Positions 42,074 to 50,082 of a DNA stretch of 64,000 bases are shown in pieces. The stretch's first letter is position 1; each line of letters begins with the position of its first letter. The stretch lies in assembly GCA_947498505.1 (NCBI GenBank), contig CANMKG010000001.1, positions 434,001 through 498,000 of the forward strand, written 5' to 3'. The position numbers and the translations under genes are program-made. This stretch comes from an uncultured Maribacter sp. GTDB lineage: Bacteria; Bacteroidota; Bacteroidia; Flavobacteriales; Flavobacteriaceae. Below the pieces are notes generated by a model. That model was not told the DNA's origin, did no database searches, and saw nothing but the letters and a program-made list of their open reading frames with translations.

Positions 42074-42905
42074 AGTTTTAAAACCAGGTTTTTTTTCAAC
42101 AATTCAAGACAACGGTAGGTATGGTTTGTTAGATAAAGGAGTTCCTGTTTCTGGTTATATGGACGCTTTTTCGGCATCTAAACTCAATAAACTTCTTGAA
42201 AATGAGAAGGATAGTGCTATGATAGAAGTTACTATGACTGGGCCTCAACTTAAGTTTACCAAACCAACAACAATTTGTGTTGGAGGTGCATTATTTTCTG
42301 GAGCTATAAATGAAACTCCTATTTTAAACTATAAATTATACACTGTAAATTCTGGAGATATTGTTTCTTTTGGAAAATTAGATAAAGGTTTTCGAGCTTA
42401 CATTGCAATAAAAGGAGGGTTTCAGACAAAAAAAATATTAAATAGCAGGTCTTTTTTTCAACCTATTACCCAATTTAGTAGCATCAAAAAGGATGACGAA
42501 ATTGGATATGAAACCGTAAGTGATTTTAAACCCAAAATATCAGAGTTAAAAATAGACTCACATTTAAATATTAAGAATATTCAGGTATTCAGAGGGCCTG
42601 AATTTGATTTACTTAATGATAAACAATTGGAAGAAATTTTTGCTAAGGAATTTTCTGTATCCAAGGAAAACAACAGAATGGCCTATCAGCTCAAGGAAAC
42701 CATTACAGGGCTTAAATTTTCCATGTTAACTTCTGCTACGCAGCCAGGAACTATACAGTTAACACCAGCAGGAAAACTCATTGTTTTAATGAAAGATGGA
42801 CAAACCACGGGTGGATATCCTCGCATTTTACAATTGTCGGAAAAAGCTATTTCTATTCTGGCTCAAAAAAAATATGGAGATGAAATTTCTTTTAAATTGG
42901 AATAA
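42066..42905 (+). CDS. pxpC: 5-oxoprolinase subunit C (KipA family)
   Basis: The 279-residue allophanate-hydrolase subunit 2-like protein has KVLKPGFFSTIQDNGRYG, GVPVSGYMDAFSASKLN, FRAYIAIKGGF and GTIQLTPAGKLIVLMKDGQTTGGYPR. I use the ATG at 42066, eight bases inside pxpB; a TTG at 42063 is the alternative. It completes the pxpABC set downstream of the Nramp-like transporter. The ilv leader region starts just after its stop. Confidence 0.95.
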   Translation: MLKVLKPGFFSTIQDNGRYGLLDKGVPVSGYMDAFSASKLNKLLENEKDSAMIEVTMTGPQLKFTKPTTICVGGALFSGAINETPILNYKLYTVNSGDIVSFGKLDKGFRAYIAIKGGFQTKKILNSRSFFQPITQFSSIKKDDEIGYETVSDFKPKISELKIDSHLNIKNIQVFRGPEFDLLNDKQLEEIFAKEFSVSKENNRMAYQLKETITGLKFSMLTSATQPGTIQLTPAGKLIVLMKDGQTTGGYPRILQLSEKAISILAQKKYGDEISFKLE

Positions 42906-42908
42906 TAT

Positions 42909-42939
42909 TTTGCCATAATATTTTTTTTAACTAAAATTG
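42909..42939 (+). promoter_or_regulatory. Candidate promoter of the ilv leader transcript
   Basis: TTTG (42909-42912), a 19-base spacer, then TAAAATTG (42932-42939), matching TTTG-N19-21-TAnnTTTG with one mismatch. The start point would fall at about 42944-42946, almost exactly at the leader ATG, so the leader peptide could be translated from a (nearly) leaderless RNA. Read-through from pxpC is the alternative source. Confidence 0.45.
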
Positions 42940-42944
42940 TCCCA

Positions 42945-43001
42945 ATGAAAGTAAAAAGTATTTTAATCAATGTCATTGTTATTGTCTCTTCACAGAGATG
43001 A
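42945..43001 (+). CDS. Leader peptide of the ilv operon (attenuation control)
   Basis: An 18-codon frame encodes MKVKSILINVIVIVSSQR. Nine of 18 residues are Ile, Leu or Val, and residues 6-14 contain eight of these in nine positions (42960-42986). The stop TGA (42999-43001) lies exactly where the antiterminator segment starts. The peptide sits 255 bases upstream of ilvD and just before a strong terminator. This is the arrangement of ilv/ivb leader peptides in enterobacteria. It is far too short to be found by ordinary gene calling. AT-rich DNA favours Ile and Leu codons, but the dense run plus the RNA structure make chance unlikely. Confidence 0.8.
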   Translation: MKVKSILINVIVIVSSQR

Positions 43002-43060
43002 TATAGATTTCTATTGATTTTAAAGAAGCCTGTATCATATGTACTGATACAGGCTTTTTT
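42999..43060 (+). promoter_or_regulatory. Transcription attenuator (antiterminator/terminator switch) of the ilv operon
   Basis: Segment 2 (TGATATAGATTT, 42999-43010) can pair with segment 3 (AAGCCTGTATCA, 43026-43037): nine Watson-Crick and two G-U pairs with one A-C mismatch. Segment 3 otherwise pairs perfectly with segment 4 (43045-43056) to give a terminator. A ribosome stalled at the Ile/Val codons leaves segment 2 free, favouring antitermination. A ribosome at the leader stop codon covers segment 2, favouring termination. A small hairpin TCTCT/AGAGA (42985-42998) precedes segment 2 and may pause polymerase. Inferred from sequence alone. Confidence 0.75.
43026..43060 (+). terminator. Attenuator terminator before ilvD
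   Basis: Perfect 12-bp stem AAGCCTGTATCA (43026-43037) with TGATACAGGCTT (43045-43056), a 7-base loop, and a T-run through 43060. It lies 200 bases before ilvD. It could also end pxp transcripts. Confidence 0.88.
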
Positions 43061-43256
43061 ATGTAGATAATTTAAACTAATGAATATGATATACAAAGTG
43101 CTATTAAATAATTGATTTTCAGATATTTAAAATAAATTGACAGGGATTGAATTTAGACATAGAATACCTGTTAAAATATTAAGGTTTATTAATGATTTAT
43201 ATTTGATTCACTATAAATAATGTAGTGATTTTATTGAATACATAGAAAAGTCTCAG

Positions 43257-44933
43257 ATGGAATTAAATAAATACAGTAAAAACGTAACACAAGACCCAAC
43301 GCAACCAGCAGCACAAGCAATGCTATATGCGATTGGTTTTAAAGATGAGGATTTTAACAAACCACTAATTGGTATTGCTAGTACTGGGTATGAAGGTAAC
43401 CCTTGTAACATGCATTTAAATGATTTAGCCAAATTAGTTAAAGATGGGGTTAACTCTAAAGAAACTGTTGGTCTTATCTTTAATACAATTGGGGTTAGTG
43501 ATGGTATTTCTATGGGAACACCAGGAATGCGTTTTTCTTTACCTTCAAGAGATATTATTGCCGATTCTATGGAAACCGTAGTGCAGGGGATGTCGTACGA
43601 TGGTTTAGTAACTGTTGTAGGATGTGATAAAAATATGCCCGGAGCCTTAATGGCTATGTTGCGTTTGAACCGCCCTTCCATATTAGTTTACGGAGGTACA
43701 ATTGCTTCAGGTTGTCATAACGACAGAAAATTAGATATTGTTTCTGCGTTTGAAGCATGGGGAGAAAAAGTTGCAGGTACCATGGAGAACGATGAATATC
43801 GTGAGGTAATTAAAAAATCTATTCCAGGAGCAGGAGCCTGTGGTGGTATGTATACCGCTAATACCATGGCTTCAGCAATAGAGGCATTGGGTATGTCTAT
43901 GCCATACAATTCATCTAACCCAGCAATAAGTAATAACAAAGAAGAAGAATGTATCGCAGCTGGTAAGCAGATGCGAATTCTTATTGAAAAAGATATTAAA
44001 CCTTTAGATATAGTAACACGTAAGTCATTAGAAAATGCAATTCGTTTAGTTACGATAATGGGAGGTTCAACCAATGCAGTACTGCACTTTTTAGCAATTG
44101 CTAGAGCTGCTGATATTGACTTTACATTAAAAGATTTCCAACATATTAGTGACACAACGCCATTTATTGCGGATTTAAAACCAAGTGGTAAATATTTAAT
44201 GGAAGATGTACACCGTATTGGTGGTATACCAGCAGTATTAAAATATTTACTAAAAAATGGAATATTACATGGTGATTGTTTAACCGTTACTGGAAAAACA
44301 CTTGCTGAAAATCTTGAAAGTGTTCCAGATTTGGAAGAAGGACAAGATGTTATTATGCCATTAGATAAGCCTATAAAAGCTACTGGTCATTTACGTATGC
44401 TATATGGAAATTTAGCAAGTAATGGTTCTGTGGCCAAAATAACAGGTAAAGAAGGTTTAATATTCAAAGGAACAGCTAAAGTATTTAATAGCGAGTATGA
44501 TGCTAATGATTCCATACGTGCTGGAAAAGTACAAAAAGGTGATGTCGTCGTCATTCGCTACGAAGGACCAAAAGGAGGACCTGGTATGCCAGAAATGTTA
44601 AAGCCAACCGCAGCAATTATGGGTGCAGGTCTTGGAAAAGAAGTTGCTTTAATAACTGATGGTCGTTTTTCAGGAGGAACACACGGTTTTGTTGTCGGAC
44701 ATATTTCTCCAGAAGCTCAAGAAGGTGGTACAATCGGACTTGTTAAAGACGGTGATGTTATTACTATTGATGCTGAGACAAATCAAATTAATGTAGCGGT
44801 TTCTGATGAAGAATTAGCCAAAAGGAAAGCTGCCTGGGTAGCTCCAGAATTAAAATTTAAAAAGGGTGTGCTATACAAGTATGCACGCTCTGTATCATCT
44901 GCAGCACAAGGATGTGTTACTGATGAGTTTTAA
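43257..44933 (+). CDS. ilvD: Dihydroxy-acid dehydratase
   Basis: IlvD dehydrates 2,3-dihydroxy-isovalerate and -methylvalerate, the third common step of valine and isoleucine synthesis. The iron-sulfur cysteines are visible in [20 protein letters not shown] and [13 protein letters not shown], with [10 protein letters not shown] and [15 protein letters not shown] further along. Length (558) is normal. It is the first structural gene of ilvDBNCA, 200 bases after the attenuator terminator. Confidence 0.97.
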
Positions 44934-44993: not shown

Positions 44994-46727
44994 ATGGAAA
45001 CATTGAAAGCAGTAAAAACGGAAACAAAAAATAAAAAAACGATGAGAATTAGTGGTGCTGAAGCTATAATACATTGTTTATTGGCAGAAGGAGTAGATTT
45101 ATTATATGGTTATCCAGGTGGTGCAATTATGCCTGTTTATGATGAACTATATAAGTTTCAAGATAAATTAACGCATATATTAACACGTCATGAGCAAGGT
45201 GCTACGCATGCCGCTCAAGGTTATGCAAGGGTTACCGGTAAGGTTGGAGTTGCTATGGCGACTTCGGGCCCTGGAGCTACAAATTTGGTAACTGGTATTG
45301 CAGATGCTCAAATAGACTCAACTCCAATGGTGTGTATTACGGGTCAGGTGTTTAGACACTTACTTGGTTCCGATGCCTTTCAAGAAACGGATATTATTGG
45401 AATCTCCACTCCCGTAACTAAATGGAACTATCAAATTACAAAAGCTTCTGAAATTCCAGAAATTATGGCAAAAGCATTTTTCCTTGCCCGCTCTGGAAGA
45501 CCTGGACCAGTTTTGGTAGATATTACTAAAAACGCTCAATTAGAAGAGTTTGACTTTAGTTATGAAAAATGTACTGGTGTACGAAGTTACAAACCTGTTC
45601 CAAAACCAGAAATATCGGCAATAGATGAAGCGGCTGAATTAATAAATAAGGCTAAAAAACCTTTTATAGTATTTGGTCAAGGTGTTATTTTAGGAGAAGC
45701 GGAAGAAGAATTAAAAGCTTTAGTAGAAAAAGCTGGTATCCCTGCAGCATGGACTATTTTAGGATTATCTGCTATGGATACGGATCATCCGTTAAATGTA
45801 GGTATGGTTGGTATGCATGGTAACTACGGACCAAACATTCTTACCAATGAATGTGATGTTCTTATTGCAATAGGTATGCGTTTTGATGATCGCGTTACTG
45901 GTAGATTAGATGATTATGCAAAGCAAGCTAAAGTAATTCACTTTGAAATTGATCCAGCGGAAATCAATAAAAATGTAATGTCCGATGTTGCCGTTTTAGG
46001 AAATTCTAAAGAAACATTATCATTAATACTACCAAAAATTAATGAAAATAAGCATGAAGCTTGGCACAATGAGTTTAAGGAAAAATACAAAATTGAATTT
46101 GACCAAATAATTCAACCACAACTAAACCCATCAAAGCCAGGCTTAACCATGGGTGAGGTATTAAAAGAAATAAATATTGCTTCTGAACATAAAGCGGTTA
46201 TTGTTTCAGATGTTGGACAACATCAAATGTTTGCTTGCAGATATGCTAAGTTTAAGCAGTCTAAAAGTAATGTTACCTCAGGTGGTTTAGGAACCATGGG
46301 CTTTGCTTTACCAGCTGCTATTGGAGCCAAAATGGGAGCAATGGAGCGCGAAGTAGTTACTATTATTGGTGACGGTGGTTACCAAATGACTATACAAGAA
46401 TTAGGTGTGATTTTTCAACATAACATTCCAGTAAAAATCGTAGTTCTTAATAATGAACACTTAGGAATGGTTCGTCAATGGCAAGAATTATTTTTTGACA
46501 GTAGATATGCTTCAACCGTGATGACAAATCCAGATTTTGTAAAAATAGCTGAAGGATATCATATTAAGGCAAAAAGAGTTTCTGAGAGGGAAAACTTAAA
46601 AGAAGCTGTTCAAGAAATGATGGCCTCAAAAGACCCTTATTTCTTGGAAGTGCGTGTTGAAAAAGAAGATAATGTATTTCCAATGATTCCAGCAGGAGCA
46701 TCGGTTTCGGAAATTAGATTGAAATAA
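44994..46727 (+). CDS. ilvB: Acetolactate synthase, large (catalytic) subunit
   Basis: This thiamine-diphosphate enzyme makes acetolactate or acetohydroxybutyrate. The 577-residue protein has the N-terminal YGYPGGAIMPVYDEL with the catalytic Glu in THILTRHEQGATHAAQGYAR (HEQGA), the middle domain with GMRFDDRVTGRLDDY, and the TPP motif IIGDGGYQMTIQELGVIFQHN. It is 60 bases downstream of ilvD and 22 bases upstream of its regulatory subunit gene. Confidence 0.97.
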   Translation: METLKAVKTETKNKKTMRISGAEAIIHCLLAEGVDLLYGYPGGAIMPVYDELYKFQDKLTHILTRHEQGATHAAQGYARVTGKVGVAMATSGPGATNLVTGIADAQIDSTPMVCITGQVFRHLLGSDAFQETDIIGISTPVTKWNYQITKASEIPEIMAKAFFLARSGRPGPVLVDITKNAQLEEFDFSYEKCTGVRSYKPVPKPEISAIDEAAELINKAKKPFIVFGQGVILGEAEEELKALVEKAGIPAAWTILGLSAMDTDHPLNVGMVGMHGNYGPNILTNECDVLIAIGMRFDDRVTGRLDDYAKQAKVIHFEIDPAEINKNVMSDVAVLGNSKETLSLILPKINENKHEAWHNEFKEKYKIEFDQIIQPQLNPSKPGLTMGEVLKEINIASEHKAVIVSDVGQHQMFACRYAKFKQSKSNVTSGGLGTMGFALPAAIGAKMGAMEREVVTIIGDGGYQMTIQELGVIFQHNIPVKIVVLNNEHLGMVRQWQELFFDSRYASTVMTNPDFVKIAEGYHIKAKRVSERENLKEAVQEMMASKDPYFLEVRVEKEDNVFPMIPAGASVSEIRLK

Positions 46728-46749
46728 TTAAGTAAGATTAGAAGAATCC

Positions 46750-47280
46750 ATGGAAAAAGAAACATTTACCATATCGGTTTATTCAGAAAACAATGTTGGA
46801 TTACTAAATAGAATATCAGGAATTTTCCTTAAACGTCATGTTAATGTTGAAAGTTTAAATGTTTCTAAATCAGAAATAGATGGCGTTTCAAAATTCACTA
46901 TAGTAATTATTGAAACATATGAAGCTGCAAGGAAAATTGTAGGTCAAATTGAAAAACAAATTGAAGTTATAAAGGCTTATTTTCACACAAATGATGAGAC
47001 TATTTACCAAGAGTCCGCTTTGTTTAAAATTAAGTCTAGCTTGTTATTTGATGAACGTCAAATTCAGAATATAATAAAAGAAAGTAACTCTCAAATTGTT
47101 ACCGTTTCAAGAGACTTCTTTGTACTGTCAAAAACAGGAAGACGTAGCGAAGTTGATGAAATGCACAGTCAATTGGAACCTTTTGGAATTATGCAGTTCG
47201 TACGTTCGGGCAGAATAGCCATAACTAAGGCCGAAATGCCTATATCAACATTATTAGAAGAATTCAACCTAAATAAATAA
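46750..47280 (+). CDS. ilvN: Acetolactate synthase, small (regulatory) subunit
   Basis: The N-terminal ACT domain (FTISVYSENNVGLLNRISGIF, with NVESLNVSKSEIDGVSKFT following) binds valine for feedback control of IlvB. The 176-residue length includes the C-terminal regulatory domain (IVTVSRDFFVLSKTGRRSE). It is placed between ilvB and ilvC, as in most Bacteroidota. Confidence 0.95.
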   Translation: MEKETFTISVYSENNVGLLNRISGIFLKRHVNVESLNVSKSEIDGVSKFTIVIIETYEAARKIVGQIEKQIEVIKAYFHTNDETIYQESALFKIKSSLLFDERQIQNIIKESNSQIVTVSRDFFVLSKTGRRSEVDEMHSQLEPFGIMQFVRSGRIAITKAEMPISTLLEEFNLNK

Positions 47281-47307
47281 ATTAAAACACATAAATAAGT
47301 ATTCAAA

Positions 47308-48783
47308 ATGGCAAATTACTTTAATACATTATCGTTAAGAGATAAGCTAACTCAATTGGGGAAATGTAGATTCATGGAGTCTAGTGAGTTTTCTGATGGT
47401 GTATCTGCTTTAAAAGGGAAAAAAATCGTTATTGTTGGCTGTGGAGCTCAAGGTTTAAATCAAGGTTTAAACATGAGAGATTCTGGTTTAGACATTTCTT
47501 ATACATTAAGAGAAGCTGCAATAAAAGAAAAAAGACAATCTTTTATTAACGCATCTGAAAATGGTTTTACCGTAGGTACTTACGAAGAACTAATTCCTCA
47601 GGCAGATTTATTAATTAATCTTACGCCAGATAAGCAGCACACAAATGTTGTTAAAGCAGTTATGCCTTTAATGAAAAAAGGCGCAACGTTATCATACTCT
47701 CACGGATTCAATATTGTGGAAGAAGGTATGCAGGTTCGCGAAGATCTTACTGTAATTATGGTAGCTCCTAAAAGTCCAGGTTCAGAGGTAAGAGAAGAAT
47801 ACAAAAGAGGTTTTGGTGTGCCAACTTTAATTGCGGTACACCCAGAAAATGATCCAGAAGGAAAAGGTTTAGAGCAAGCAAAAGCTTATGCTGCTGGTAC
47901 AGGAGGAGATAGAGCAGGTGTATTAGAATCTTCTTTTGTTGCTGAAGTAAAGTCTGATTTAATGGGTGAGCAAACTATATTATGTGGATTGCTACAAACA
48001 GGATCTATTCTTTGTTTTGACAAAATGATTGAAAAAGGTATTGACGCTGGTTATGCTTCTAAACTTATTCAGTACGGATGGGAAACTGTTACAGAAGGTT
48101 TAAAATATGGTGGTATTACTAATATGATGGACCGTTTGTCTAATCCAGCAAAAATTAAGGCTTTTGAATTATCTGAAGAATTAAAAGATATTATGCGCCC
48201 ACTGTTTCAAAAGCATATGGATGACATTATGGAAGGTGAGTTCTCTAAAACAATGATGGAAGATTGGGCTAATGATGATAAAAACTTATTAGGTTGGAGA
48301 GCAGCCACTGGTGAAACTGCTTTTGAAAAAACTCCAGCTGGAGATATTGAAATTTCGGAACAAGAGTTTTATGACAATGGTGTTTTAATGGTTGCCATGG
48401 TTAGAGCAGGAGTAGAGCTTGCGTATGAAGCAATGACTGATTCTGGAATTATCGGAGAGTCTGCTTATTATGAGTCTTTACATGAAACTCCATTAATTGC
48501 AAACACCATTGCTAGAAAAAAATTATTTGAAATGAACAGAGTAATTTCAGATACTGCAGAATATGGTTGTTATTTATTTGACCACGCTTGTAAGCCTTTA
48601 TTAACAGACTTCATGACAAAAATTGATACCGATGTAATTGGTAAAAATTATACTGAAGGGAAAAGCAATGGTGTAGATAATGCCAAATTAATTGCTGTTA
48701 ATAAAGCATTAAGAGAGCACCCTGTTGAAACTGTTGGAGCAAGATTAAGAGCTTCAATGACAGCAATGAAACCTATAGTTTAA
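47308..48783 (+). CDS. ilvC: Ketol-acid reductoisomerase, long (class II) form
   Basis: IlvC isomerises and reduces acetolactate to dihydroxy-isovalerate with NADPH. The protein has the Rossmann motif [33 protein letters not shown], and [13 protein letters not shown]. At 491 residues it is the long class II form with a duplicated C-terminal domain, as in E. coli. An inverted repeat (TTCCCT/AGGGAA) lies in the 48-bp gap to ilvA. Confidence 0.97.
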
Positions 48784-48831
48784 ATTAATTCCCTCCCTTG
48801 AGGAGATCTTAAGGGAAGAAAAGACATAATT

Positions 48832-50082
48832 ATGACTTACTTCCCTGAAATAGATAGCATAAAAAAAGCGGCGAAAAACATTCAACAAGTTGTTGAAGTT
48901 ACGCCGCTTTCTTTGAGTTTAAGACTTTCCGAGCTATATCAGTCAAAAGTATTTCTTAAAAGAGAAGACTTACAGCGAGTACGGTCCTATAAAATTCGAG
49001 GAGCTTTTAATAAAATAAGTTCGCTTTCAAAAGAGCAACAACAATTAGGTATAGTGTGTGCTAGTGCGGGAAACCATGCTCAAGGTGTTGCCTTTTCTTG
49101 TAATCATTTAGGTATTAAAGGTACTATTTATATGCCATCGGTAACTCCAAACCAAAAAATTGAACAGACAAAAATGTTCGGAGGAAAATGGGTTGATATT
49201 GTTCTTGAAGGAGATACTTTTGATGACGCCTCTAGAGCTGCAACTCAATTTTGCATCGAAAAGAAAAAAACATACATTCATCCCTTTGACGATCCCAAAA
49301 TTATTGAGGGACAAGGTACAATTGGGCTGGAAATATTTACACAATCTAATACTCCAATCGATTATGTTTTTGCACCTATCGGAGGTGGAGGTTTAGCTTC
49401 TGGTCTAATAGGAAGTATAAAAACATTATCGCCAAATACTAAAATTATAGGGGTAGAACCTGAAGGTGCTCCTTCTATGAAAACATCTATAACTAATAAA
49501 AAAAATACAGCATTAAAGCATATAGATAAATTTGTTGATGGTGCAGCTGTGAAAAAAGTTGGAGATTATACATTTGATATTTGCAGCAAACATCTTGATA
49601 ACATGGTTACTGTGCCTGAGGGACAAGTTTGTCAAACAATATTAGATCTTTACAATCGCGATGCTATTGTGGTAGAACCCGCAGGGGCTTTAACAATTGC
49701 TGCATTAGATAATTATACTGAAGAGATAAAGGGTAAAAATATTGTTTGTATTGTTAGTGGAAGTAATAATGATATTACCAGAACAGCAGAAATAAAAGAA
49801 CGAGCTTTATTATATGGTAATTTAAAACATTATTTTATGGTTAGATTTCCACAACGACCAGGAGCCCTTAAAGAATTTGTTACGGAGATTTTAGGTCCGA
49901 CGGATGATATTACTCATTTTGAGTATTCCAAAAAATCTAGTAAAGAAAATGCTCCTGCTGTAGTTGGTATTGAACTTAAATCAGCATCTGATTTAGAGCC
50001 ACTTATTCAACGGATGAAAACAAATAATTTTTATGGACAGTATCTTAATAATAAGCCAGACCTGTTTCAATATCTTGTTTAA
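48832..50082 (+). CDS. ilvA: Threonine ammonia-lyase (biosynthetic)
   Basis: IlvA makes 2-oxobutyrate from threonine, the entry to isoleucine. The PLP lysine is in VRSYKIRGAFNKI, with SAGNHAQGVAFSC and the glycine loop PIGGGGLASGL. At 416 residues it has one short ACT-like C-terminal domain (HYFMVRFPQRPGALKEFV). Its presence shows that the isoleucine route runs through threonine. It is the last gene of ilvDBNCA. Confidence 0.95.
   Translation: MTYFPEIDSIKKAAKNIQQVVEVTPLSLSLRLSELYQSKVFLKREDLQRVRSYKIRGAFNKISSLSKEQQQLGIVCASAGNHAQGVAFSCNHLGIKGTIYMPSVTPNQKIEQTKMFGGKWVDIVLEGDTFDDASRAATQFCIEKKKTYIHPFDDPKIIEGQGTIGLEIFTQSNTPIDYVFAPIGGGGLASGLIGSIKTLSPNTKIIGVEPEGAPSMKTSITNKKNTALKHIDKFVDGAAVKKVGDYTFDICSKHLDNMVTVPEGQVCQTILDLYNRDAIVVEPAGALTIAALDNYTEEIKGKNIVCIVSGSNNDITRTAEIKERALLYGNLKHYFMVRFPQRPGALKEFVTEILGPTDDITHFEYSKKSSKENAPAVVGIELKSASDLEPLIQRMKTNNFYGQYLNNKPDLFQYLV

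What the first reader, a model, noticed from the sequence alone, without database searches (positions are those of the whole stretch)
42945..43060. Translation-coupled attenuator and unannotated leader peptide controlling ilvDBNCA
Seen: an 18-codon frame (MKVKSILINVIVIVSSQR) with eight Ile/Leu/Val codons in nine, a stop codon that overlaps the start of an antiterminator (42999-43010), which pairs with 43026-43037 (11 of 12 positions counting G-U), and a perfect 12-bp terminator using the same middle strand followed by a U-run. Known: this three-part logic is classical ilv/leu/trp attenuation in Proteobacteria. Inferred: branched-chain-tRNA charging sets read-through into ilvD. A well-formed example in a flavobacterium is of interest because leader attenuation is much less documented there, and the peptide would be missed by gene callers.
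Basis: partly seen in the sequence, partly recalled or inferred. Interest (0 to 1): 0.85.

Follow-up and report, generated by a model that had tools for sequence, protein, structure and literature searches.

The report
Ile/Val leader-peptide attenuator before ilvDBNCA
Just upstream of its isoleucine/valine biosynthesis operon this marine flavobacterium carries a tiny gene and an RNA switch that probably read how well tRNAs are charged with those amino acids; the kind is classical, but here it recurs across the family, is stacked two in a row in some relatives, and sits next to a possible second promoter.

Summary
The 18-codon leader, 2:3 antiterminator and 3:4 terminator are at the stated coordinates. 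A matching leader plus terminator precedes ilvD in 55 of 104 distinct flavobacterial upstream regions (0-2 per 104 in shuffles) and in 51 of 106 surveyed genera. In 32 aligned sequences of one terminator type, the window's own included, the 1:2 stem and outer 3:4 pairs covary; the 2:3 core is kept in all 32, varying only by one-sided changes. A -7 box 5 nt before the leader ATG predicts a 5'UTR of about 1 nt. Nineteen distinct ilv loci carry two detected leaders in series, one at least three, and downstream leaders lack a promoter box. Between terminator and ilvD, Maribacter-type loci carry a rigid ~117-bp DNA module ending in a second -7 box, which may bypass the attenuator. The mechanism is known, and attenuation of amino-acid operons was already proposed for Flavobacterium psychrophilum (PMC9723704). 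This is a well-supported new member of a known kind, on comparative sequence evidence only.

The parts
42909..42939 (+). Predicted promoter P1: TTTG (42909-42912), 19 nt, -7 box TAAAATTG (42932-42939); TSS predicted at 42944
   Evidence: Read. A -7 box (5 or 6 of 6 key bases) 2-12 nt before the leader ATG in 51 of 55 first leaders (L045 included); larger set with another pattern: 59 of 70 single leaders, 16 of 19 first leaders of tandems, 1 of 19 downstream leaders, 75 of 1068 random ATGs. Box position -12 to -5 from PMC9723704 section 15.
42945..43001 (+). Leader peptide ORF, 18 codons plus TGA: MKVKSILINVIVIVSSQR
   Evidence: conserved I/L/V run in relatives; densest nine-codon windows are 42% Ile, 26% Val, 8% Leu over 61 leaders, operon background 22.9% I+L+V.
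42980..43003 (+). 1:2 protector hairpin: 42980-42989 pairs with 42994-43003; its 5' strand covers the last Ile-Val codons
   Evidence: -8.6 kcal/mol alone; covariation in 32 aligned sequences: 29 cells with both sides changed against 9.3 shuffled, 94.8% paired.
42999..43037 (+). 2:3 antiterminator: 42999-43010 with 43026-43037 (core 43000-43006 with 43030-43036)
   Evidence: -10.7 kcal/mol; core paired in 32 of 32 aligned sequences, no both-sided changes; pairs better with its own terminator type.
43026..43060 (+). 3:4 intrinsic terminator: 43026-43037 with 43045-43056, T-run 43055-43060
   Evidence: -19.0 kcal/mol; 99.7% of cells paired, 4 pairs with both-sided changes (the core was part of the selection of the sequences).
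43081..43205 (+). Rigid DNA module of a predicted second promoter P2: TGAATATGATA (43081), TTGAATTT (43147), TGTTAAAATA (43169), -7 box TATATTTG (43198-43205); TSS2 about 43210
   Evidence: spacing from TGAATATG to the -7 box is 116 or 117 in 48 loci (44 distinct); no RNA structure in the alignment; one strong match per genome, at ilvD, in 8 of 8 genus genomes.
43257..44933 (+). ilvD, first gene of the controlled operon
   Evidence: TIGR00110, 755.7 bits, cut-off 618.15.
44994..50082 (+). ilvB (44994-46727), ilvN (46750-47280), ilvC (47308-48783), ilvA (48832-50082)
   Evidence: TIGR00118, TIGR00119, TIGR00465, TIGR02079 above cut-off.

Best explanation
It is a ribosome-mediated transcription attenuator for the ilvDBNCA operon. 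RNA polymerase starts at P1 about one nucleotide before the leader ATG, so the leader mRNA is nearly leaderless. When Ile-tRNA and Val-tRNA are charged, the ribosome reaches the stop codon and covers segment 2; segment 3 stays free to pair with segment 4, and transcription stops at 43055-43060. When Ile or Val is short, the ribosome stalls within codons 6-14 and breaks up segment 1; segment 2 then pairs with segment 3 before 4 is made, and polymerase reads on into ilvD. Without translation, in the window's RNA, 1:2 forms and termination is the default (this does not hold for all relatives). Shown by sequence and comparison: the parts, their conservation, the covariation of 1:2 and outer 3:4 pairs, and the joint change of segment 2 and terminator arm between types. 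Computed: the position-dependent switch. Inferred: the start site, translation of the leader, the amino-acid response, and that this governs a large share of ilvD transcription. In this lineage a candidate promoter P2 just downstream probably adds attenuator-independent transcription.
For: Leader plus terminator in 55 of 104 distinct upstream regions against 0-2 per 104 in shuffles, and in 51 of 106 genera against 4 of 530 shuffled regions and 6 of 106 reverse complements (stricter I/L/V threshold). Covariation of 1:2 and outer 3:4 pairs; 2:3 core kept 32 of 32. Segment 2 pairs better with its own terminator arm than with arms of other types: means 19.1/16.8/18.0 against 12.2/11.8/12.9 for types A/B/C. 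Ribosome-position calculation: mean antiterminator probability 0.80 on stall, 0.19 at stop; 52 of 60 leaders switch. Window: 1.00 with Val14 in the A site, 0.00 at stop, 0.19 without a ribosome, where 1:2 is 0.88. -7 box next to single and first leaders, not downstream ones. Leaders with His or Trp runs and a terminator precede hisG (18 of 18 loci) and trpE (15 of 16 looked at), own genome included.
Against: 55 of 106 genera show no leader by the detector (it misses some: G301 and G367 have leaders at the looser threshold). Within the aligned set 2:3 varies only by one-sided changes, so it has no covariation of its own, and one of its 12 pairs is never formed. The aligned sequences were picked by their terminator core, so that core's conservation is no evidence. 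8 of 60 leaders did not meet the switching criterion; with no ribosome the mean antiterminator probability is 0.53, so default termination is not general. In tandem loci a leader's segment 2 beats the cross pairing in 9 of 14 comparisons, ties in 4 and loses in 1. With segment 4 complete the terminator wins in every state, so the switch must be kinetic. P2 may carry much of the transcription. No RNA or reporter data.
Confidence: 0.9

Rival explanations
1. The hairpin is only the terminator of the upstream pxp-like operon (last stop codon ends at 42905) and the short ORF is a chance frame.
For: The terminator lies about 120 nt after the pxpC-like stop codon and could also end read-through from that operon.
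Against: I/L/V-rich frame recurs in diverged peptides with its own -7 box; conserved 1:2 stem; in L043, L039 and L052 a separate terminator precedes the leader; leaders also occur upstream of an ilvE-like gene followed by ilvD (the name ilvE rests on my recall of its start, no call tested it).
Confidence: 0.03
2. A metabolite- or tRNA-binding RNA (riboswitch or T-box) rather than ribosome stalling.
For: Structured 5' RNA before a biosynthetic operon.
Against: No Rfam family at gathering score in the window; conservation lies in codon content and competing stems, with peptides and loops free to vary; control residues match the pathway product in the ilv, his and trp leaders.
Confidence: 0.03
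3. The attenuator exists, but most ilvD transcription comes from P2 downstream of it, so the attenuator is a minor input.
For: Rigid module ending in a -7 box that starts 53-59 nt before ilvD; seven named loci keep the module with no detected leader (L040, L044, L053, L055, L056, L060, L066); family models: module in 24 of 149 genomes, attenuator in 34, both in 11; of the 13 with the module alone, 12 were in the survey and none showed a leader.
Against: The attenuator is strongly conserved where present; the module is lineage-restricted; promoter activity is inferred from a motif only.
Confidence: 0.3

Closest known systems
Corynebacterium glutamicum ilvBNC leader (PMC11857589, passages read; ilvB-II motif, PMC10272879, abstract text and passages read)
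   Same: Short leader rich in I/L/V codons, three competing hairpins, terminator with a U-run, start site one nucleotide from the leader ATG, operon for the same pathway.
   Different: Other phylum, other peptide; here a Bacteroidetes -7 box, two attenuators in series in some relatives, and a downstream promoter-like module.
Leader attenuators of enteric ilv/leu/trp/his operons (recalled, no call)
   Same: Four-segment 1:2, 2:3, 3:4 logic with control codons before segment 2.
   Different: Here the predicted near-leaderless start leaves no room for a Shine-Dalgarno sequence.
Leader-peptide attenuation clues in Flavobacterium psychrophilum (PMC9723704, section 19 and part 1 of 2 of section 15 read)
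   Same: Same family of bacteria; attenuation proposed upstream of amino-acid operons; a hisG 5' element conserved in other genera.
   Different: Its main text has 'ilv' 0 times; no tandem form in the parts read. Its Table S7 of 64 structured 5' regions was not seen and could list more.
Short ORFs in long 5'UTRs of Bacteroides thetaiotaomicron (PMC7366714, passages read)
   Same: Same phylum; described there as reminiscent of attenuation leader peptides.
   Different: Example given is a hypothetical gene; no ilv leader in the passages seen.
Tandem attenuators of the Salmonella mgtCBR leader (PMC3641672, abstract and section list seen)
   Same: Two short ORFs with attenuators in series ahead of one operon.
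   Different: There the two respond to different signals (ATP and proline); here both leaders are Ile/Val rich.

Membership tests
Ribosome-mediated (classical) transcription attenuator | Short leader ORF rich in codons for the pathway's amino acid | tested here: met
   8 of 9 codons I/L/V in the window; 61 leaders, 76% I/L/V in the densest windows.
Ribosome-mediated (classical) transcription attenuator | Mutually exclusive antiterminator (2:3) and intrinsic terminator (3:4) | tested here: met
   2:3 without covariation of its own.
Ribosome-mediated (classical) transcription attenuator | 1:2 protector stem overlapping the control codons | tested here: met
   for the window and its terminator type; not tested by alignment in the other types.
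Ribosome-mediated (classical) transcription attenuator | Ribosome at control codons frees segment 2, at stop masks it | tested here: met
   By calculation only: (52 of 60).
Ribosome-mediated (classical) transcription attenuator | Read-through responds to tRNA charging in vivo | not testable with these tools
   Needs RNA or reporter data.
Rfam Thr_leader (RF00506) | Score at or above the gathering threshold | tested here: not met
   25.6 bits against 55, on both strands.
T-box or riboswitch of Rfam | Match to a covariance model at gathering score | tested here: not met
   No match at gathering in the 64-kb window.
Leaderless mRNA | Transcription start at or within a few nt of the ATG | tested here: inconclusive
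   Predicted from box position; no mapped 5' end.

The most novel reading that the evidence does not exclude
Across Flavobacteriaceae the ilv operon is governed by a modular leader: one promoter set against the first leader's start codon drives one, two or three complete Ile/Val attenuators in series, so that polymerase must pass each checkpoint for the same amino acids, which would sharpen or widen the response. In the window's lineage a single attenuator remains, and a separate rigid ~117-bp DNA module with its own -7 box, found only before ilvD, bypasses it.
Probability: 0.6. Interest if true: 0.65.

Novelty: new member of a known kind. Interest (0 to 1): 0.5.

Why it matters
It indicates that classical leader-peptide attenuation is widespread for Ile/Val, His and Trp operons in a large bacterial family where direct evidence is thin, and that it probably works there with an almost leaderless leader mRNA. 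The tandem form, with two or three checkpoints for the same signal, makes a quantitative question testable: does stacking attenuators steepen the response? The attenuator and the possible bypass promoter also show where control of this operon should be sought.

Tried and rejected
Rfam gave nothing above threshold in the window or in four loci with ilv, his or trp leaders. The Thr_leader match is weak and on both strands, so I take it for terminator-hairpin similarity only. Ordinary sigma-70 promoter hits were set aside because this phylum uses TAnnTTTG boxes (PMC9723704). leuA: no Leu-rich leader with a terminator in 18 loci looked at of 20 fetched; in L198 the gene start was not located. Outside the family: 40 regions fetched, five of them from the window's own family, gave five detector hits; two are from the own family, and L142, L162 and L163 were not followed. 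The idea that the P2 module is a folded RNA was rejected (no consensus pairs). A helical-phase array was not supported (periodicity p 0.28) and is not claimed. The module as part of a regulon was rejected for the genus (one strong match per genome in 8 genomes, the rest at noise).

Rows dropped and selections: L020 (no upstream DNA) left out. L045, a probable false hit, is counted and left out. L037 left out. Alignment A1 holds 32 of the 33 references, which picked sequences by a terminator pattern; L022 dropped, L035 and L043 not included. A2 holds 31 of 44 distinct modules (the gapless 117 class without L045 and L055), picked by their two ends. G015, G023 and G291 left out of the 109 genomes with ilvD (106 examined). 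trpE: 16 of 20 fetched loci looked at; in L184 the gene start was not located. Of the 34 attenuator matches I looked at the surroundings of 29; in four (G324, G339, G347, G353) no ilvD was seen. A looser look at the 50 loci without a hit showed further leaders (for example L009, L042, L051, L088), so the counts are lower bounds. The His and Trp leaders had no shuffle control. In one search leaders could use any in-frame ATG of their first nine codons and random ATGs only one, which favours the leaders; the pattern was written after one search had been seen, and G319 entered with two of its three leaders.

Papers: ten searches, all hits listed; seven papers were opened. No listing or passage seen describes an ilv leader of Flavobacteriaceae or same-signal tandem attenuators, but subscription journals and supplements are not covered, and Lopatovskaya 2010 was seen only as a reference.

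Full report
Setting. The window lies in genome G000, contig 1, 434001-498000. The closest named relatives by ilvD are Maribacter species (95% for the best named loci; very near records may be left out there). The genes after the feature are ilvD, ilvB, ilvN, ilvC, ilvA. Upstream is a pxpC-like gene ending at 42905 (best NCBIfam matches below their cut-offs); three bases separate its stop codon from the TTTG of the predicted leader promoter.

Observation. The leader is MKVKSILINVIVIVSSQR with 8 of 9 I/L/V codons at codons 6-14. The stop codon 42999-43001 opens segment 2. Segments 2 and 3 pair at 11 of 12 positions. Segments 3 and 4 form a perfect 12-bp stem whose last two pairs use the first two of six T (43055-43060). 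The 116-nt stretch folds with z -6.3 against 200 shuffles. Alone, the three stems are worth -8.6 (1:2), -10.7 (2:3) and -19.0 (3:4) kcal/mol.

Conservation. Upstream regions of ilvD were taken from 110 loci; 109 could be used and 104 were distinct. A leader of 10-35 codons with at least 5 I/L/V in 9, placed just before a terminator, was found in 55 of 104. Ten shuffled sets gave 0-2 per 104, the reverse complement 6 of 104. A looser look showed more leaders among the misses. Over 61 leaders the densest nine-codon windows are 42% Ile, 26% Val and 8% Leu, so Ile and Val look like the main signals.

Covariation. I aligned 32 sequences picked by the window's terminator pattern (the window's own is one of them, L022 of 33 was dropped). 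The 1:2 stem has 94.8% of cells paired and 29 cells with both sides changed (shuffled mean 9.3, 0 of 500 as high). The 3:4 stem has 99.7% paired and 13 such cells, 11 of them in the outer three pairs (shuffled mean 2.0). The 2:3 stem has its 7-bp core paired in 32 of 32, but only one-sided changes, so here it shows conservation without covariation; one of its 12 pairs is never formed. Between terminator types segment 2 does change together with the terminator arm: it scores better with its own arm (means 19.1, 16.8 and 18.0 for types A, B, C) than with arms of other types (12.2, 11.8, 12.9) or after shuffling (12.2, 11.2, 11.9). Own scores pass the 95th percentile of shuffles in 24 of 28, 10 of 16 and 9 of 15. 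Between the two leaders of the seven Aquimarina tandems the preference is weaker: own beats cross in 9 of 14 comparisons, ties in 4, loses in 1.

Mechanism by calculation. I folded the RNA still free in front of a ribosome placed at each codon, with the transcript ending before segment 4. In the window the antiterminator core is near certain with codons 5-15 in the A site (0.99-1.00), falls at codon 16 (0.69) and is absent at the stop codon. Without a ribosome 1:2 dominates (0.88) and the antiterminator is at 0.19. Over 60 leaders the mean antiterminator probability is 0.80 on stall, 0.19 at stop and 0.53 without a ribosome; 52 of 60 switch by the criterion used. So default termination without translation is clear for the window but not general. 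Once segment 4 is made, the terminator wins in every state, so the choice must be kinetic, as in known attenuators (recalled).

Leader start. In F. psychrophilum the -7 box TAnnTTTG lies at -12 to -5, and leaderless mRNAs are 5.5% (PMC9723704, section 15). In the window TAAAATTG ends 5 nt before the ATG, with TTTG 19 nt further upstream. This puts the start at 42944 and leaves a 5'UTR of about one base. A box with 5 or 6 of 6 key bases lies 2-12 nt before the ATG in 51 of 55 first leaders. With a second pattern on a larger set the numbers are 59 of 70 single leaders, 16 of 19 first leaders of tandems, 1 of 19 downstream leaders and 75 of 1068 random ATGs (limits of this test are told under Tried and rejected). 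C. glutamicum ilvBNC has its start one nucleotide from the leader ATG (PMC11857589). The start site here is a prediction.

Tandem attenuators. Seven of the twelve Aquimarina loci looked at have two leaders and two terminators in series. In a survey of one genome per genus (149 genomes, 109 with ilvD, 106 with enough upstream DNA; at least 6 I/L/V in 9), 39 have one detected leader, 12 have two and 55 none; shuffles gave 4 of 530 and the reverse complement 6 of 106. In eleven of the twelve pairs the downstream terminator carries a GCCTGTATC-like arm as in the window; ten of the twelve upstream ones were typed GCCTTCC-like by the script. G319 carries three leaders before an ilvE-like gene and ilvD, the second and third nearly identical; the survey counted two of them. 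G289 shows a second leader at the looser threshold (L243) and counts as single. Because downstream leaders lack a -7 box, one transcript would have to pass each attenuator in turn (inference). A Flavobacteriales trpE locus (L177) has two Trp leaders, each with a terminator. Known tandem attenuators of Salmonella mgtCBR read two different signals (PMC3641672 abstract).

A possible second promoter. Between terminator and ilvD, 35 of 55 regions contain TAnnTTTG (10.1 expected from base shuffles); in 31 of the 35 it starts 53-59 nt before the ATG. It is the end of a rigid module beginning with TGAATATGRTA: with 112-122 allowed, the spacing to the -7 box was 116 or 117 in all 48 loci found, 44 of them distinct. 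The module keeps its distance to ilvD and not to the terminator. It has no consensus RNA structure and gives one strong match per genome, at ilvD, in 8 of 8 genus genomes. In the family it matches in 24 of 149 genomes, the attenuator model in 34, and both in 11; of the 13 with the module alone, 12 were in the survey and none showed a leader. Seven named loci keep the module without a detected leader. I read it as a promoter with upstream binding sites that bypasses the attenuator. Activity and binding protein are unknown.

Same design elsewhere. His-rich leaders with a terminator precede hisG in 18 of 18 loci (18 of 25 genomes searched have hisG), and leaders with WW or WWW precede trpE in 15 of 16 loci looked at, the own genome included in both (MRNTNMHHHFHTGSQAR, MRNKGINTWWWSNLRKTS). 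No shuffle or covariation test was made for these. leuA showed none in 18 loci.

Novelty. The mechanism is classical. Attenuation upstream of amino-acid operons in this family was proposed from transcriptome data (PMC9723704, section 19); short ORFs reminiscent of leader peptides were noted in B. thetaiotaomicron (PMC7366714); and Rfam lists a Bacteroid-trp motif (RF01692, seen as a table row of PMC2864571). The window element is therefore a new member of a known kind. What goes beyond the papers that I could search is the family-wide ilv series, the same-signal tandems and the triple, and the downstream module.

Noticed in passing
43081-43205: Rigid ~117-bp DNA module ending in a -7 box that starts 59 nt before ilvD; 44 distinct loci, also some where no attenuator is detected; one strong match per genome in the genus.
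   Followed up: yes
L071, L072, L074, L083, L090, L104, L105 and family genomes G020, G256, G285, G305, G308, G309, G316, G319, G320, G348, G362, G366: Two (in G319 three) Ile/Val attenuators in series upstream of ilvD or of an ilvE-like gene followed by ilvD; downstream leaders lack a promoter box.
   Followed up: yes
L125 (own genome, upstream of hisG) and L171 (own genome, upstream of trpE): His-rich (MRNTNMHHHFHTGSQAR) and Trp-rich (MRNKGINTWWWSNLRKTS) leaders with terminators; the same kinds in the relatives examined.
   Followed up: partly
L177:102-351: Two Trp leaders in series (MQKINTIWWWQSKL, then MLNNKINNWWWPVLTQYAGQSCYNII), each with its own terminator, before trpE in another Flavobacteriales family.
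   Followed up: partly
L142, L162, L163 (other Bacteroidia): Terminator hairpins 17-37 bases before ilvD with I/L-rich short frames; may be independent attenuators or chance.
   Followed up: no
L009 and L070: A Maribacter relative keeps stems and a -7 box, but its leader, read by eye as MKIKLTIFSVYSIVS, has a looser Ile/Val run, perhaps a weakening attenuator.
   Followed up: no
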